From positions 62,001 through 126,000 of the forward strand of contig MDYQ01000027.1 in assembly GCA_003024175.1 (NCBI GenBank): 64,000 nt of DNA. The letters are read 5' to 3'. The position numbers were made by a program, and so were the translations under genes. This document shows, piece by piece, positions 9,001 through 20,194 of the stretch; position 1 is the stretch's first letter, and every line of letters starts with the position of its first letter. The notes beneath the pieces were generated by a model. That model was not told where the DNA came from. It did not search any database and saw nothing but the letters and a program-made list of their open reading frames with translations. Source of the DNA: Planoprotostelium fungivorum (taxonomy: Eukaryota > Evosea > Variosea > Cavosteliida > Cavosteliaceae).

Positions 9001-11471
9001 ACGTACTCAGGCAGTTCTTGGTTCAATCTCTCCCAGAAGAAACTCTCATTGAAGATCCTCTGGATGTTCGTGTTGAAATTGTTCTGAAGGTAAGAGTCTT
9101 CAGCGCGCGTGATGAGGGGAATGTTCAGTCGCTGTAGGGCGTTCTCATCCACAGAAGTCAACCATTCACCGAACATCTTCTTGATGTAGTCCTCCAGTGA
9201 CAACTTCGTCTGGGTGAACTGTGTAGTGACATCCGCTCTCGAATCGGCAGCGAAATCCTCGAGAAAAGTCGCAGACTCTAAGACCTGCAGACGTTGTAGC
9301 GGGAGGATAGATGAAATGATTTCACCTCGAATTGTTGTGTGATGCGCGTCAGCAAGCCTTTGCACCACAGGGCAGCTCCTGCACTCTGTGGGTGCAGAGG
9401 ATCCAGGGGTGGAGAACTTCTTCCCACGTCGAACTCTTTTCTGACCTGAATGACGTCATCACACGTCATTCACGTCATCACTTGCCTTGATGAGATCTTC
9501 CATGAAGATTCCGTACAACTCGGAGGTTCGTTTGTCCAACGTTCTCCTGATGGTCTCTCTCTTGGAAAAGTGGACAAAAATCTCGATCAATTCCACGCCG
9601 GCAGACACGGTAGACACGGTCTCAAAAGCGTAATTGATGACGTTCCTCATCATCACCTCCAGGTCTTTCAGTCCTCTCTTGAAGGAGTTATAGTCGTCGT
9701 GCCACTGTGTCGCGTTGACGTCCAATATATCGTAATCGAGCAGGCGAAGCTGATTCAGTAGCTTATCGAAGGCGAGCTCGATGTCTTGAATTCCTTTCGT
9801 CGTCTCCGGCCCAGAAGATCCTCCGAAAGAGGGAAATTCGCTCTGTACAATTGAGAAACGTCAACGAAATCTCACGCACCTTATCTCCACCGGTAGATTT
9901 CCTGGCGAATTGCATCTGTGCCTCGCAGATCTCGAGTAGATCCTTACACCTCTGCACGAAGGCATCCATCTGAGCAAAGATACTGCTCACTTCGAAGGTC
10001 CACGGTGCCCTGCCCTCGGCTTGGATTTCCCTCGCCGTCTTCGTGTATTGTTCCTTCCACGCTTCACCGCTATGTATACTGTCTTGTAATGATTCTACGC
10101 TAGTAGTGATGTCTCCATCGAAGATCTCGTAGAGAGAAATCTGCGCTCGGCAGCGATTGATGATCTCGTTGGAGACCTGTACGATTGAGATCTCGCGGAG
10201 ATTTCATGGGAGATTCACCTTGCGGAGGAGGCCGGTCAGTCTCTCTGGCACGTTGTAGTGGGACGAGAGGTCCCAGATCATTCGAATGCAGCTGAGAATT
10301 CGGGGCAAAATCGACGGAATTTCTTTGGGAGTTGCCCTGGATAACTCCTCGCATGGCTCTTGGAGGGCAGATAAGAATCTCAAGTTCTCTTGTGCTTCAT
10401 TGCTTCCCTTTTGCGTCAGATCTGACAGTTTCAAGAAGGGTTGAAGGTAGCCCTATGCTCCATCAGATGATGGATGTGTGATCGGAATCTGATGATCTCA
10501 CCGATTTGGCGATCTCTAAGACCTGCTGGATCTTGCGAACGCCAGGTCGTTGTAGTTGCTCTCTGATGCCGGAGAGATCGACAGTTCTCAATCGCCAGAA
10601 CTCGATCTCGGAGAGGGGTCCGGCGTTTTCGACGAGCTCTGCGTTGTCTTGGTTCGTAACGACCTCTTTGATCTGTCTCGTCCAATGGATGAGGATGGCT
10701 ACAGATGGTCAATCGTAACGTTACGATTTGAGATGAAATAGGATGTAGAAGAATCACATTCTAAACGATGGACGAGATCCTTCTCATTAGCGGCGAGGTT
10801 AGGATCGGTTAAATTCTCGTTTGGGATGTATAAGACTGTGGATCCTTGGCTCTGGAAAGCCACCTCCGTCAGAGAAGCCATAAACTTTTGTGCATGCCCG
10901 GTGAACTCTTTCTTAACTCCTAAATCATGTTTGAGATGCGATTGTGATGGTGAAGGGTTTCGACTCACTTGGTGGCCAGGCAGCATTGTCTAATACCTTG
11001 TTGAGGAGCTGATTGCTCATTAATTTATACAGGTTCTCAACAGAGGTGTCCGTATTGATTCGGCTGTGAAAGAATTGACTGCTGAAGTCTGTAGTATGTC
11101 CGTTCGTCTTTTCTTTTGTCTTTAAGAGGAAGATCACCTATAGATGGAAATCAGATCGATCCATTCATTTTTCGGATTATCTTCACCTCTGGAGGTGATG
11201 GAACGGGTGGATTGACGTCGATCTTGATAGACGACATCCTCGCCGGTGGAGTCGCAATGCTGGTGCCGCTGGCGGGTCTGTCCTTATATATGTCCCTGGA
11301 GAACTGTATATCACTCCATACGAAGACTCTCTTCAGATCATCTTGAATATAGTATTGCGATAGGACTTCGTTGAATGTGGGCGGAACGTTTGTAAACACC
11401 AGACCGTACTCCTTTGAAAGGAGAGCTTTTGTCCATTGTATAAAGGCATCAGTCTGTCTATCTACCACCAT
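1..11471 (-). CDS. DNAH2: Axonemal (inner-arm) dynein heavy chain, DNAH2 type, 3' part beyond window
   Basis: Force-generating ATPase of the ciliary inner dynein arm. The protein reads from high to low coordinates: tail (about 8.9-11.47 kb), linker (about 5.3-8.8 kb), AAA1 with Walker A GPAGTGKT near 5.02 kb, AAA2 with GSTGSGKST near 4.05 kb, AAA3 with GNTGTGKT near 3.02 kb, AAA4 with GVGGSGRQS near 1.87 kb, stalk helix 1 (706-1130), microtubule-binding domain (WAEAKRQL, about 370-671), stalk helix 2 (60-360) and the first residues of AAA5. AAA5 tail, AAA6 and the C-terminus lie left of the window. Blocks such as [31 protein letters not shown] and [12 protein letters not shown] match remembered axonemal DNAH2 rather than cytoplasmic dynein. 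There are roughly 25 exons with introns of about 35-95 nt. The start is the ATG at 11471 ([10 protein letters not shown]). One intron at 9447-9492 appears to have a GC donor. Family is certain; the exact DNAH2 orthology is likely. Confidence 0.9.
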
Positions 11472-11616: not shown

Positions 11617-14600
11617 TTAATAGAGTCCCAGAGCTTTCTTCGTGTTCTCTTGCTTCCATGATAATTGCTTCTGGAACTCTGCTTGAGTCATCTTGAAGTA
11701 TTTCACAAAGTCTTCTGTCGATAAGTACTTCTGTGGAGGGTGAGTGGACGATGAGGTCACAGATCATCACCTCTAGGTTTCTGCTGTCCAATTTAGCCGG
11801 TTTTGTTCTCAATTCCTCGATCGTGTATGTCTTTGAATACTCCGCAAACACTTCGTCCACCGTCTGAAAGGGTTCGTTCGATAACTAGTCGTCGTATCAG
11901 AATGAGATGTACGATGAACATGATTCAGCTCACCGATGTCTTTGTATGATCCCATCCGTGAAAACAAGCAGTGAAATCAGGCGGTTCTTTGCCTGACTTC
12001 ACCACCTTTTGATGTTAGCATCGCGTTGACGATCGTCAAGTGCTCACCTCCGATCGACATGAACCGCGTTTCTCGATGATCAACTTTTGATAATTGTTGG
12101 CTGTTTCGAGTGTCTTCTTCTGTTTTTCTTCGTTCGCCTTCTTTCCCACCCACACGTAGAGTCTAGGACCACCGGTGTCCAATATGGCCTGTTCTTTTCA
12201 GTATCATCAACTCAGAGGTCGTTCTCACCATATCATTATCCTCCAGGTTATCTTGGCAGAAATCAAAGACCTCTTCGGCCTGATCATCAAGATCAGATGA
12301 GGTGATAACACGGATATTCACCTTGAATGTACCAGAAGCGTTTGAGCATTGGAACAATTTAGCAAGTGAATTCTTACTCATCGTGCTATACTTTGGTGAG
12401 CCTGCGGGAAGTTCACCACCGAGTGCCTTCCAAAAACTTGCGTCTTCCTCTTTTTCTTTGATTTCAGTCACATTCAAGATGCCAGGGATGAACTTAGTAG
12501 CTCTCCTGGCCGCTTCCACCTGTAGTCGATCAGCCACATCTCACCACCGTCATCACCTTCTCGTTGCTCGCTGCAGAGCCCTTCCACAGTTTGCATTCCG
12601 TCTCGTTCATGATTAGAAAGCAGTCGAGAGAACATAGTCCGAGGGGTGTCTGAATGTGGTGAGAAGCCATCATCACACCACAGTGACTCACCACAAACGG
12701 CATCTGTATCGGATAGTATTGCGATTGGGTTGCTCTGGCGCTGACGTGAAAGAGTTTCCAGCATGGGATCGACGGATTGTGGCTCTTTGAAACTGAATTG
12801 ACCACAATAAATCTATCTTTGAACACGGACAAGAAATGCGGTGTCTCTTGGTTCTGTACCACTCGTACCTTTCACATCATCACCCGCTATCCACGATGAG
12901 ACCCTGCAGCGACTCACCTGAGTTGCTCCACCGTTTGTAATCTCCTCTCCCACATTTACGGTCAAATAAGCACTCGTGCCCTTTTCGCTCTGTGATTGTT
13001 GTGAATCTTTCGATTCAGTTTAAGCCGACTCACCACTGAACTATCTCGACCCTGCCAGAAGTACAACACATTCACTTCTCGATTTCTCACCATGTACGTG
13101 TACAAGATGATGTAACTCTCAGAACTACGGAATATTCCCCATTCTGCTTGAGGGACCTGAAGAGATCTATTTCAACAGAAAGTCACGAGCTGAACACTGC
13201 ACCTCCGTCTTTCCGAATTCTTTGATCATCCAGATGGTCTTCTTGCCTGATCCATTATCTCCATCGAATACGACTCTTGTAACCTCTGGCTTCTTGTTAT
13301 TGAACATTGCATTCACATCTAACGGTCTATCCTCGTGCTCTGCAACAGATGAGATATCGAATCCACATTCATCGCGGTGACTCACTCGTAACCGAGATGT
13401 TGCCACGAGGAGTGGAAGCCATTTGAATGGGCAGGACATCGGGCCAATTTGTAAATTTCTCTTTGAACAAAATGGTCTCTCCCCCCTCTAGGACTTTGAA
13501 GGGTTTCACCCACGACGGCCTCGATGCGTTTGATTTCATCAATTTCTGGTCGTCCTCAGTTCATCGCTCGGTCTTTTTCCCTCACCTGACACAACAGGAC
13601 GGATTCTTTCTTAAATTTGAGAGGAGCCTTCTGTCCCTGCCATACGTACACTTCGTTTCCGCTATCCAAGATGTAACATTTGTCCGCCTCGATCATTTCA
13701 CGTTGTAGCTTCCCCACCCCTACCGGAGTGTAATCGATCTGTCCATCCTTCTCCTGGACTCTGTGTATCCATCAATGATCGAGATTCGGAGCGATAATAA
13801 CCCACACATATAGATAGTCCATAGTATCAGGCTCTTCAACTGGAGGGTTCTCTGCAATCTTGGATGGCTTCCCTCCCAGTGCCTTCCAAAATTCAGCTTC
13901 TGCTGCAGCCTTATCTGGTCCATCTGTATCATATCAGCAGTGAGATCTTCTATATTGTGTCTCACCGATGTTTATGACTTCTGCCCTCGACTTCCTCTCC
14001 TTGTGCTTCATTCTGGAGGCAACATCGACTGCCTTAGCTTTCTCGATGCGATTGGCCTTGGATCCATTCCAAACGATGATCTTATCAAAGAGATCCAATA
14101 TGAACACGCATTCTTCGCTGACTGTCGAAGCCGCATAGACGACGGTCTCGACTCTTGTTCCACGACGCCCGATGACCCGAATCAGCTTCTTCTGTTTCTC
14201 GTCCATGAAAAAATCCAATGGAACCGATGAAACAGAAGTGGGTATGCTCCCTGAAGACGATGAGAAGGCATGGGATGAGGAAAATGTCACCCGTGGACGC
14301 TCTCAGATTCACTCCCTCGATAGTGGTCTGCTTGAGTGCTTGAGCCAGCAGGGTGTTTCCTGCACCTTTCGGCATGGTTCTAACCATAATGTTCGGTGTG
14401 CTGTTTGTTCTTGTTGGGGTGGCTGCCGCACTCAAAGGTATCGCAGCCGGAGACTGTTAAGATAAGATGGTGATTCGATCGACGAATTTCCACACCTTGG
14501 CTCCCATGGCCGCTTGATTCTCAGCTACGATGGACGCCGAATCAGCCTCGATCTTCGCCTTGTTCTTTAGAGCATCTTTGGTTGCCGCTCTTCTGTTTGC

Positions 14601-14690
14601 GATGGTGGGACGAGATGGTAATTTAGGCGACATGCTGAGATGTCTCATGTCGGGTGAATCAGTGAATGACAGCTCCGGACTCGACGTCAT
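11617..14690 (-). CDS. Villin: six gelsolin repeats plus C-terminal headpiece
   Basis: Actin-binding, capping, severing or bundling protein of the gelsolin/villin family. Exons show successive gelsolin-like repeats (KLIRVIGRRGTR with VFILDLFDKIIVWNG; KCYILDSGNEVYVWQG; VLYFWQGRDSS; DCFLIMNETECKLWKG; LYVWVGKK) and linkers of the type ASFWKALGG and FWKALGGKP. The last exons encode a headpiece (YTIEELRTKP, then KYLSTEDFVKYFKM) ending KKALGLY and TAA at 11617-11619. Introns are about 38-60 nt. A free-standing gene would start at ATG 14690 (MTSSPELSF), only 4 nt after the stop of the upstream kinesin reading frame. An in-frame 42-nt intron (14454-14495) joins that N-terminal segment to the first gelsolin repeat. 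The alternative is that this is the C-terminal half of a kinesin-villin fusion. The product class is very secure; the 5' boundary is not. Confidence 0.9.
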
Positions 14691-14694
14691 GCTC

Positions 14695-17600
14695 TTATCT
14701 TCGATCAGATTGATGTACCTCATGCACACTCACTGTGGAAGTGGACGAATTGGAATCATCGAAAGCTTTACGATCTGCTGTCATCTTCTTGAAGTCATCT
14801 ACTTCTACTGACCGTGTGACTGGTGTACCCGGTGTAGAGCTTTCTCTCGATGATGAAGCGTCTGGACTCTTCAGACCCGAAGCGTTCTTGGTGGCTCGAT
14901 TGGTGACAGATCGAATCCTCTGAGCGTATGCCAGAGAGTTCAAGGTCTCGTCGCGGTTGGAGAAGGCAGGTGACACGCAGACCATCATGAGGGTCTTGGC
15001 GTTACCTCCGATCGAATCGGACAGGAGCATCGTTAATTTGTTGTTTCGATAGGGGATGTGAGCTTCTCCTGATGAGAGAGCGGAGATGACGTGACCAATG
15101 GCGGCGAGAGACTTGTTGATGGATTGGGCTTCTTTCAATCTGACGTCCGTGGCACCTGATTTTCCCACTCTCTCTGATCCAGCTAAATCCACCAACGTCA
15201 GTTTACCTGTTGTTGATTATCGAATCATCGTACATCTCAGAGACGTACCTAATGTATACTCTTGTGATGGAGATTTGATAGATCGGGTCTCGATGTAGAG
15301 GGCGATCAAGAGGTGAGATCTGGACGAATGCTCGTTCATATTGGTGGACTCCACGTGTCGATTGGATGATCCCGTCTTGATGAGTTGGAGTAATTCTTGA
15401 GCGGAGTGACAATCCTTTGAAACGATGTTCTGTACGATGACAATTCCCCTCGCATCTTTCGTAATGTTCAACTTGTCTCCCGCTCGTCTGTTCGTGTGAG
15501 ACAAAATTTCGGATGTGACCCACGTGTTGATCTGCTTCTTCAAATCTTCTTTGGAGAAGAGGTCCAGCAGCTCATCGTTGTATAACTCCATCATACAGCA
15601 CGACACTTTGTACTGAGTGGTTGATTTCCCTGCCTCTAACAGATCGAATAACTTTCTCGCTGCTCTGGGAATGATTCCTGGAGACGTATCGTATCCCATC
15701 ATGGTGTGGGTCTTTCCTGATCCAGTTTGACCATAAGCGAAGATACAAACGTTATAACCGTCCGCAGCAGACTGCACCATGTCTCCTACATCATCGAAGA
15801 TCTGCTCTTGAGACGTGTCGGGGGCAAACATCTTATCGTAGTCGAACATTTTCGGCTGTTCCAGTCACACGGATGAATTCATCGAGGGAGCAGCTCACCT
15901 GCTTATCACCATCGATTCGTATGGTATATTCGTCGACAGTTGAGGCGACAACAGACTCCTTCGCTGCATTTCCAAATCCAGTGGAAGACAGAGGACGTAT
16001 ACGTCCGTACACTCTGCGGTTCATTTAAAACCTGATATCATCGATGACCCACCTGATGTTTCCCTTTTCTTGTATGTACATGTTGTAATATTTCTTGCGG
16101 AGTAGTTGCTCCTCTCGATATCTCGCATCTAATTCAGCCATCTGCTGTTTCAGGCTGACGATCGGACCGTTCTCTTCTTGCATCTGCTTGATGGCGTCAC
16201 GAAGATCTTGATTCGTCTTCTGTTGATTCTGCAATTTTTGGGAAGCTCTTGCCACCGCCTCCTTAACGGCTGCCATTTCTTTCAGGAATTTGTCGTTGGC
16301 CGCTTGCTTTGCGTCGAGGGTGGCTTGAAGCTCTTTCGACTGCTGGTTGAGCGTGGCAATTTGGGCAGCTTGTTGATTATTTTGTCGGTCGGTTTCTTGC
16401 TGAGAGCGAGCATTTTTGAGTTTCTCAGACTCTTTCATGTTCTGATACAATTAGCTTATCCGAATCAATAAATTGAAATGTATCACCTCGATGGTCTTCT
16501 CCTGATCATTAATCTTTTTCTCTTTGATTCTCAGCTGATCTTGTAGAATTCCCTGTGCAGATTCGGCGGCACGAATCATCTTCTCTGTCTCTGAAATCTT
16601 ACTCTCTAACTCCTTCAGCCTTTTAGTGCCGGTTTCGTTGTCTACGATGGTTTTCAGTGACAGCCTGATTATCTCTCTCACTCTTCTTGGCCAAATCCAA
16701 TGCTTTATCACGCTCCGCTAACTTGGTCGTCAACACTTTGATCTGGTTCTGTAAGGTAGCAGACTCCTTCTTCTCTGAATCAGAGCGACTGTTGGGACTA
16801 GTGGTGGTAGTGGATGGCGTTGGAGGTGACAAAACCTTGGACGAAACTACAAATTAATCCTCGACGACTTTGATTCACTGCTTACCTCTGGACGGTGTGG
16901 TCGTGGTTGTTGTCGTTTTCGTGGGTGTGGCGCTGGATTTGTCCGGATCCACCTCACGATCAGACATCGACACCTTTTCTTTCGGTTTACTCTTCACATC
17001 TCCACCTTTGTCTCCTCTCTTCTCGAGCAGACTCTTCAGAACGGCTGGTGTTCGTGAGTCCTGAGTGTGGTCGTTGTCTTACCCTCAGCCGTCTTGGCAT
17101 GGGTTGGGGATGGATCCTTTCCGGGTGGTAGCAGGATGGGACCGAAGATCTTGCAGATGATGGAAACAGAAACTTTGTTTGCAGATGCCAGAGAGGTCAG
17201 AGCGGAGAAGTAGTAGAGAAGAGCATTCAATAGATCACGACTGTGAATAGATAACTCTTCGACGATCTTCTGTACAGCCGATCCCGCTGTGTTGATCAGA
17301 AAACATCGAGACGACAAGGATATTCACATCGATCTGTGAGGGCTTTTGTCCATTGATTCATCATACTGGGAGAGGGAAGAAGGAGGGATTGCGGAAGATA
17401 GAATAGATACAGTTTGAGGACGGCGGAGATGGTGTGAACATCGTCAGTGGCCCATTTGTCTAAATCCACTCCTTGTGAGAGAGCCCCGGAACGGAAAGCT
17501 GTCACAGTCAGATCGGTTAAACGGTGATACGTGATGATTACGATATCACTGCAACTCACCCTTCTCATATTCGTTCTTCAATTGTTTTACCTTCGTTTTA

Positions 17601-17849
17601 TCAGATGCTTGCCGGAATAGGTTCTCTGTCAATAAGTGCTCTGCAATGAATCGGTCAACCTCTTCACCTTGACCTATTTTACTTACTCTTCTTAGACAAG
17701 ATCGCCAATATATCCTTCACGATGAAGGGAATCGTATTGGACAGATCGGGGTTCGCAGCCTCCTGGACTAATAATACAGAATCTATGGGTGAACCGAACA
17801 GCCCCGAAGTTGTTTTAGACCTCGGCGTGGTTGCTGCGCTAGCGCTCAT
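14695..17849 (-). CDS. RhoGAP - coiled coil - kinesin-14 motor protein (KCBP-like motor)
   Basis: Microtubule motor joined to a GTPase-activating domain. The N-terminal RhoGAP (about 17.1-17.75 kb) has [11 protein letters not shown], the arginine finger in TENLFRQAS, and [21 protein letters not shown] Ser/Thr/Lys-rich linker follows, then a coiled coil (16.0-16.8 kb), then a C-terminal kinesin motor (14.9-16.02 kb) with [10 protein letters not shown]-loop GQTGSGKT, switch I NEHSSRSH and switch [10 protein letters not shown]. Motor position and sequence ([32 protein letters not shown]) point to kinesin-14 near plant KCBP. The MyTH4-FERM tail of KCBP is not seen here. The start is taken at ATG 17849 ([10 protein letters not shown]); upstream in-frame codons lack an ATG, so a 5' exon is possible. 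The frame ends at TAA 14695, but a GTGAGT...AAG intron could skip this stop and continue into villin. Confidence 0.88.
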
Positions 17850-19416: not shown

Positions 19417-20194
19417 TCATTCTGTACTCTCTTCTTTCTTCTTCTTCCTCTTTTCGATCGCTGGTTCAGGTGCTGTCGTTCGTGTCATTTGTGGTTGAGA
19501 AGACGACTCACCGTTCTTGTTGCCTATGGCATAGAAACGCTTCATGATGGACACCGCTTCATCTTTCAATATCCCAGAGACGACTTCGTAACCTGCGATG
19601 ACATCGTCATCATCATCATCATCGTTTAGATGTCTCAATTACCTTCTGGACAATTCTTGGACTTTTCCTGGTGGACTGAAATAGTTGTACCGCAGCCACC
19701 GAATCGATCGTTGGAACATCCAAAGTAGACTTTTCGTATTCCTGATCGTCTCAATTTCAGTTTGGGACGAATTATCCCGCCCAAAGTCTCACCGATGTGA
19801 AGGAGCGCGGAAGCACACATGATGCAAGGCTCGCACGTGACGTAGAGATCTGTCTCGTTGAAGATCTTCTTTACGGTTTCTTCATCTTTCGGTTGCAGGT
19901 TCTCCAGGATGGCATCGATGGCAACCAATTCAGCGTGTCGTGTGGCCTGTGATTGTCAGTGGAGATGAAGCGACTATAATCACATTTAGAGTCTCTGATA
20001 CGAGATTGTGTGCTCGACCGATGATGATTCCATTTCTGACAAACACACAACCAATGGGTACTTCAACTTCTTCTCGGCTGATCGACGTCTCTGCCTCGAA
20101 CAATGATCAGAAGAGCGATCCAACTTGATCTTACCACTGATAAGGCTTCTCGCATATACTGGATGTGTGATTCCTCTGATCCTTCTGCAGACAT
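19417..20194 (-). CDS. ADAT2: tRNA-specific adenosine-34 deaminase catalytic subunit (TAD2/ADAT2)
   Basis: Converts wobble adenosine 34 of tRNAs to inosine, acting as a dimer with TAD3/ADAT3. The visible cytidine/deoxycytidylate deaminase fold has the zinc ligand and proton-shuttle motif HAE (TRHAELVAID) and the second zinc motif PCIMC in TDLYVTCEPCIMCASALL, followed by VYFGCSNDRFGGCGTT, typical of ADAT2. The C-terminal tail is longer than usual and lysine-rich (IEKRKKKKEESTE). The start is ATG 20194 (MSAEGSEESHIQYM). There are about four exons. The gene is divergent from the acetyltransferase at 20275, with 80 nt between starts, and convergent with mL46. The partner ADAT3 was not seen here. 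Confidence 0.9.

What the first reader, a model, noticed from the sequence alone, without database searches (positions are those of the whole stretch)
14437..14740. Kinesin-14 and villin may be one fused gene: RhoGAP - kinesin - villin
The kinesin frame stops at 14695 and the first ATG of the villin frame is at 14690, with 4 nt between. A perfect-looking 40-nt intron (14694-14733, GTGAGT donor, ATAAG acceptor) would remove the kinesin stop and join the kinesin tail in phase to the villin N-terminal segment. A second in-phase 42-nt intron (14454-14495, CTTAACAG acceptor) removes the next in-frame stop and leads into gelsolin repeat 1. Elsewhere here same-strand neighbours are at least about 100 nt apart. 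A single protein with RhoGAP, minus-end-directed type motor, six gelsolin repeats and an actin-binding headpiece would physically couple Rho signalling, microtubules and actin. I know of no described protein with this order.
Basis: partly seen in the sequence, partly recalled or inferred. Interest (0 to 1): 0.82.

Follow-up and report, generated by a model that had tools for sequence, protein, structure and literature searches.

The report
Amoeba kinesin fused to actin-binding villin
In this amoeba two neighbouring reading frames, a microtubule motor with a Rho-regulator domain and an actin-binding villin, are most likely one gene for a single protein that could tie the two cell skeletons together; a public database already predicts the joined protein, but no messenger RNA proof was available here.

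Summary
The coordinates hold: kinesin TAA at 14697-14695, GAGC, villin-frame ATG at 14690, a bridging 40-nt GT-AG intron (14733-14694) and an in-phase 42-nt intron (14495-14454). Splicing 28 introns gives one open 1,678-aa frame: RhoGAP, coiled coil, KCBP-type kinesin-14 motor, S/T/A-rich linker, five (not six) gelsolin repeats, headpiece. GenBank already holds the join as hypothetical protein PROFUN_02862 (98% identical; same junction intron); none of my paper searches listed a description. Best independent support: villin-family linker homology starts about 80 nt after the join, leaving no room for an ordinary villin promoter. Weak points: AAG acceptor (only 6 of 63 reference introns score as low); the kinesin would have a normal-length tail without fusion; the deposited model looks computational and misses a RhoGAP exon; no transcript was seen; no second species was found. 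The villin's sister in the tree (P0124) carries no kinesin domain. One gene is most likely (about 0.75); a junction intron used as a switch is an open, bolder reading.

The parts
11617..17849 (-). whole fused coding region, 29 exons and 28 introns in my model, 1,678 aa
   Evidence: spliced by hand, no internal stop; deposited PROFUN_02862 98% identical over 100%, 25 of its 27 introns shared with mine
17123..17729 (-). RhoGAP domain (exons 1-4; limits converted from the Pfam match)
   Evidence: PF00620 55.8 bits in P0001; PDB matches such as ARHGAP15
16053..16780 (-). probable coiled-coil stalk (approximate limits)
   Evidence: weak coiled-coil-type Pfam hits; homologous to the C173 motor-less paralog
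14905..16003 (-). kinesin-14 motor domain, KCBP-type (limits converted from the Pfam match)
   Evidence: PF00225 344 bits; best PDB match KCBP 3h4s; tree 100/99 with the KCBP clade
14695..14697 (-). TAA that ends the kinesin frame if the junction intron is retained
   Evidence: sequence
14694..14733 (-). junction intron, 40 nt, GTGAGT...ATAAG
   Evidence: present in the deposited model; 12 of 63 reference introns score as low or lower
14688..14690 (-). ATG of the villin frame, A at -3; Met 884 of the fused protein
   Evidence: sequence
14454..14495 (-). second intron, 42 nt, GTGTGG...CTTAACAG, removes the next in-frame TAA
   Evidence: present in the deposited model
14496..14612 (-). start of the linker homologous to the segment before the gelsolin repeats in amoebozoan villins (RPTIANRRAATK...)
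   Evidence: spliced alignment starts at 14612 with P0124 and 14600 with P0122
11952..14203 (-). five gelsolin repeats corresponding to G2-G6 (limits converted from the alignment)
   Evidence: PF00626 and PF25480
11617..11884 (-). villin headpiece (core VHP about 11727-11620) and stop
   Evidence: PF02209 44.2 bits

Best explanation
The locus is one gene. A 40-nt intron (14733-14694) removes the kinesin stop and joins a RhoGAP - coiled coil - KCBP-type kinesin-14 to a villin-type protein (linker, gelsolin repeats G2-G6, headpiece). The protein would dimerise through the coiled coil, walk on or crosslink microtubules with the motor, hold actin filaments with the gelsolin repeats and headpiece, and bring a RhoGAP domain to that site. 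Shown: the frames, the introns as sequence, the domains, the families. Inferred: that the mRNA is spliced this way, dimerisation, minus-end direction, actin binding, GAP activity.
For: One 1,678-aa frame after splicing. The deposited protein PROFUN_02862 uses the same junction intron and the same second intron. Villin-family linker homology begins at 14612, about 80 nt after the join, so villin coding reaches almost to the kinesin stop; in the seven relatives I read by eye this linker lies well inside the protein behind an N-terminal extension (sequences), as it does in the fusion. Length 40 nt is typical (median 42, range 36-61 in the other 27 introns of this gene) and AAG acceptors occur elsewhere. 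An equally good bridge that is not an intron of this gene occurs at 17 of 487 comparable stops. AT in the 60 nt after the TAA is 0.47 against 0.57-0.63 after seven other stop codons; over 100 nt it is 0.48 against 0.51-0.65 (locus L050 not included). That difference only restates that villin coding sequence follows at once.
Against: No RNA evidence. Weak acceptor. The kinesin frame would end about 60 aa after the motor alignment, inside the 38-75 aa range of its seven clade relatives, so the TAA is a plausible natural end. TAA-GAGC-ATG with A at -3 also suits a separate or reinitiated villin. The deposited model is not clean evidence: it skips a RhoGAP segment that a paralog on C173 keeps. My own model is also open to doubt at two other places where the two differ: neither alignment to relatives called my 36-nt motor intron 15523-15488, and at 13805/13801 P0122 supports the deposited boundary and P0003 mine. 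No second species with the fusion was found (with length limits). A crude gene finder used the junction intron in 12 of 12 settings, but over-merges: in 2 of 12 it also joined the next gene, and in 1 of 12 it broke the gene at 14457/14387; I give it no weight.
Confidence: 0.75

Rival explanations
1. Two tandem genes 4 nt apart with overlapping untranslated regions: a RhoGAP-kinesin-14 ending at 14695 and a villin starting at 14690 or at a later ATG.
For: Normal kinesin-14 tail length at the TAA; weak AAG acceptor; signs of a compact genome (convergent stops 11 nt apart on C173); the villin half's tree sister P0124 carries no kinesin domain.
Against: Villin promoter and 5' UTR would lie inside kinesin coding sequence; deposited as one protein; the one tandem pair checked nearby is 145 nt apart.
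Confidence: 0.17
2. One transcript, two outcomes: the 40-nt intron is spliced or retained, giving either the fused protein or an 894-aa kinesin, with the villin possibly made by reinitiation at the ATG 4 nt after the stop.
For: Weak acceptor with the TAA at the very end of the intron; stop, 4 nt, ATG with A at -3.
Against: No expression data; several other introns of this gene also have low acceptor scores, so a weak acceptor does not mark a regulated intron.
Confidence: 0.08

Closest known systems
KCBP (KIN-14E, plant kinesin-like calmodulin-binding protein)
   Same: Motor falls in the KCBP clade (100/99); best PDB match is KCBP; KCBP binds both microtubules and F-actin (PMC4574192, passages read).
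   Different: KCBP carries N-terminal MyTH4-FERM and ends soon after the motor; here the N-terminus is RhoGAP and the actin-binding part is a villin behind the motor. No MyTH4 or FERM hit.
KCH (kinesin-14 with calponin homology domain)
   Same: A kinesin-14 carrying an actin-binding domain; described as actin-microtubule linkers (PMC4451249, abstract and outline only).
   Different: Actin binding by a CH domain; the two CH-kinesins in my tree fall in another branch.
Amoebozoan villins (LRR-villin P0002/P0003; P0011; P0124)
   Same: Linker, gelsolin repeats and headpiece; sister of P0124 in the tree (99/98). P0124 is an unnamed environmental record, so its host is unknown.
   Different: They carry LRRs plus extra gelsolin repeats, or a disordered-looking N-terminus, where this protein has RhoGAP-kinesin. 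The same genome keeps an LRR-villin on C134.
Class IX myosin
   Same: Cytoskeletal motor with a RhoGAP domain in one chain; myosin-IXb RhoGAP is among the PDB matches. Its domain order is recalled, not tested.
   Different: Actin motor, RhoGAP in the tail, no villin (recalled).

Membership tests
Kinesin-14 | motor groups with kinesin-14s and apart from the kinesin-3 (KIF13) outgroup | tested here: met
   tree of 21 motors, KCBP clade 100/99, three KIF13 outside
Kinesin-14 | neck and stalk on the N-terminal side of the motor ([18 protein letters not shown]) | tested here: met
   aligns with KCBP RKRYYNTIEDMKGKIRVY
Kinesin-14 | motor near the C-terminus (usual, not defining: the CH-kinesin P0044 has its motor at 391-725 of 1024) | tested here: not met
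   met only in the two-gene reading; in the fusion the villin follows the motor
Kinesin-14 | minus-end-directed movement | not testable with these tools
   needs a gliding assay
KCBP | MyTH4-FERM tail | tested here: not met
   no such hit at E 0.001 in the Pfam scan of P0001; so not filed as a KCBP
KCBP | calmodulin-binding C-terminal helix | not tested
   none
Villin | gelsolin repeats G2-G6 followed by headpiece | tested here: met
Villin | six gelsolin repeats including G1, as in animal-type villins | tested here: not met
   residues 1-129 of P0121 have no counterpart ahead of G2; so filed as villin-type, not as an animal-type villin
RhoGAP | RhoGAP domain by profile | tested here: met
   PF00620, 55.8 bits against a cut-off of 24.5
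RhoGAP | arginine finger and partner residues | tested here: inconclusive
   R of NLFRQAS and K of LKLYLFYLP align with ARHGAP15; the second basic residue of LKMFFRELP is F here. The roles of these residues are recalled.
Single fused gene | transcript spliced across 14733-14694 | not testable with these tools
   no RNA data held

The most novel reading that the evidence does not exclude
The weak 40-nt junction intron is a regulated switch: spliced, the cell makes one RhoGAP-kinesin-villin that mechanically couples Rho signalling, microtubules and actin; retained, the mRNA makes a stand-alone kinesin and, by reinitiation 4 nt after the stop, a stand-alone villin.
Probability: 0.08. Interest if true: 0.75.

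Novelty: new variant of a known kind. Interest (0 to 1): 0.5.

Why it matters
The actin-binding kinesin-14s that I met in the papers seen here (KCBP, KCH) are from plants. A protist that joined a KCBP-type motor to a villin and a RhoGAP would be an independent route to the same coupling, with a Rho regulator on the same chain, and the key step could be tested by one RT-PCR.

Tried and rejected
Six gelsolin repeats: rejected. Taking PROFUN_02862 as independent proof: rejected, because it skips the RhoGAP segment [14 protein letters not shown] whose counterpart the C173 paralog keeps (SPSFMSHWHDVIRDR). Of the deposited model's 27 introns 25 agree with mine; the other differences are the 36-nt motor intron 15523-15488, which only I remove, and the boundary at 13805/13801, where relatives disagree. 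Spliced alignment as a check of my introns: of the introns it called in the villin half, 10 of 15 (P0122), 9 of 16 (P0124) and 11 of 14 (P0003) equal mine; in the kinesin half 4 of 5 (P0006) and 3 of 9 (P0008). A home-made gene finder: over-calls introns and over-merges genes; no weight given. Search of residues 1-500 of the kinesin half: no hit at E 0.001 among 7,987 scored candidates of 0.55-1.75 times the half's length; low-complexity words may have filled that list, so it is weak evidence of absence. Another kinesin-gelsolin pair on contig C295: same strand but about 7 kb apart; not followed to gene models. The original genome paper could not be read (not held), so whether RNA-seq guided the deposited model is unknown to me. 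Paper searches whose listings (titles, abstract starts) showed no protein of this order. In PMC2867816 (kinesin evolution) a word search of the main text found 0 mentions of RhoGAP, gelsolin or villin.
Full report
Where it is. The window is G000:C207:62001-126000 of a 36.9-Mb, 471-contig assembly. A protein 98% identical to the one encoded here is deposited as PROFUN_02862 of Planoprotostelium fungivorum, a variosean amoeba; a paper on minor introns says this NCBI genome is really Protostelium aurantium (PMC10639083, passages).

The observation. On the minus strand the kinesin frame ends TAA at 14697-14695, followed by GAGC and an ATG at 14690 in the villin frame. I spliced the whole locus by hand: 28 introns, 29 exons, 17849 to 11617, 1,678 codons, no internal stop. 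A spliced protein-to-DNA alignment that knows only GT-AG and BLOSUM62 recovered part of these introns from relatives: 10 of 15, 9 of 16 and 11 of 14 called introns equal mine in the villin half (P0122, P0124, P0003), 4 of 5 and 3 of 9 in the kinesin half (P0006, P0008). None of these alignments reaches the junction, and at the second intron they start at 14495 or 14493 but choose other acceptors. The deposited protein maps to 27 introns, 25 shared with mine, the junction and the second intron among them.

How good is the junction intron. I collected 45 introns at seven other loci of this genome with at least 6 of 10 positive residues on each side; the 36 of these up to 120 nt long plus the 27 other introns of this gene make 63 for scoring. 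Of the 63, 19 score as low or lower than the junction for the donor, 6 for the acceptor, 12 for the sum: acceptable, not perfect. The acceptor is AAG; 6 of the 45 and 2 of the 27 also use AAG. As a base rate, of 487 stops that end an open frame of at least 60 codons on either strand of the window, 23 are bridged by an in-phase intron at least this good into 60 more open codons; 6 of the 23 are introns of this gene, the junction and the 42-nt intron included, and others may be real introns of other genes. Chance therefore gives at most 17 of 487.

What lies after the junction. The villin half aligns near its N-terminal end with the segment that precedes the gelsolin repeats in other amoebozoan villins: RPTIANRRAATK at 14612 against RPAGPVRRPATK in P0124, and ANRRAATK at 14600 against AGRRAPTK in P0122. 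In P0124, P0122, P0011, P0151, P0002, P0003 and P0013 this segment lies well inside the protein, behind a disordered-looking, gelsolin-bearing or LRR N-terminus (sequences, read by eye); animal-type villins such as P0121 have repeat G1 there instead. Villin coding sequence thus reaches to about 80 nt from the join. AT in the 60 nt after the kinesin TAA is 0.47, against 0.57-0.63 after seven other stops; over 100 nt 0.48 against 0.51-0.65, which follows from villin coding sequence starting at once.

What the halves are. Pfam on the deposited protein: RhoGAP, kinesin motor, gelsolin repeats, DUF7904, villin headpiece. The motor is of the KCBP type: best PDB match KCBP and a 100/99 clade with KCBP in a tree of 21 motors. 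The villin half is sister to P0124 (99/98) and separate from the genome's own LRR-villin on C134. It has five repeats, G2-G6, not six. The RhoGAP aligns its R and K with ARHGAP15 but has F at a third basic position. A motor-less paralog of the RhoGAP-coiled-coil half sits on C173 and stops at the kinesin neck (KYLDMYNKEKSQQV); the kinesin search of this genome listed no place on C173 (which scores only the best candidates).

Is it found elsewhere. The search with the full fused protein scored 7,984 candidates of 0.55-1.75 times its length and gave 422 hits, 120 shown; among those 120 only P0001 combines kinesin with gelsolin or headpiece. The villin-half search gave 57 hits, none with a kinesin domain, but could not have listed proteins longer than about 1,390 aa. 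The search with residues 1-500 of the kinesin half gave none (weak). The fusion is thus known to me from this genome only. Five paper searches listed nothing that describes it, judged from titles and abstract starts.

Against the fusion. The kinesin frame would end about 60 aa after the motor alignment, within the 38-75 aa of its seven clade relatives, so the TAA is a natural-looking end. There are signs of a compact genome, with two convergent stops 11 nt apart on C173. The deposited gene model skips a RhoGAP segment and may be purely computational; I could not read its source paper. No RNA was available.

Verdict. One gene, about 0.75; two tandem genes, about 0.17; a switch by intron retention, about 0.08. 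If fused, the most likely mode of action is that of an actin-microtubule crosslinking kinesin-14, as shown for KCBP (PMC4574192, passages), with villin as the actin-binding part and a RhoGAP domain to act locally on Rho-type GTPases. The splicing event, direction of movement, actin binding and GAP activity are all inferred.

Noticed in passing
L049 4326-5925 (contig C173:289326-290925): Motor-less paralog of the RhoGAP-coiled-coil half, ending at the kinesin-14 neck; it looks like a kinesin-14 that lost its motor.
   Followed up: partly
window 17366-17328: The deposited PROFUN_02862 removes this stretch of the RhoGAP domain as intron; the C173 paralog keeps the counterpart. Probable annotation error.
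   Followed up: yes
L048 (contig C295), about 8.7-10 kb and 0.5-1.9 kb: Another kinesin and another gelsolin-repeat region on the same strand of one contig, about 7 kb apart.
   Followed up: partly
contigs C5:35625 and C120:4736: Kinesin hits with identical scores on two contigs, perhaps a duplicated or haplotype region in the assembly.
   Followed up: no
L051 (contig C134:119501-129000): An LRR-villin gene aligned over the full length of P0003, 23 introns called.
   Followed up: yes
L049 5925-5937: Convergent open frames with stop codons 11 nt apart; suggests a very compact genome.
   Followed up: no
window 10463-10708, minus strand: Dynein heavy chain N-terminal region (PF08385) downstream of the villin end, so microtubule-motor genes lie close together.
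   Followed up: no
window 19635-19955, minus strand: Cytidine-deaminase-like frame (PF00383) upstream.
   Followed up: no
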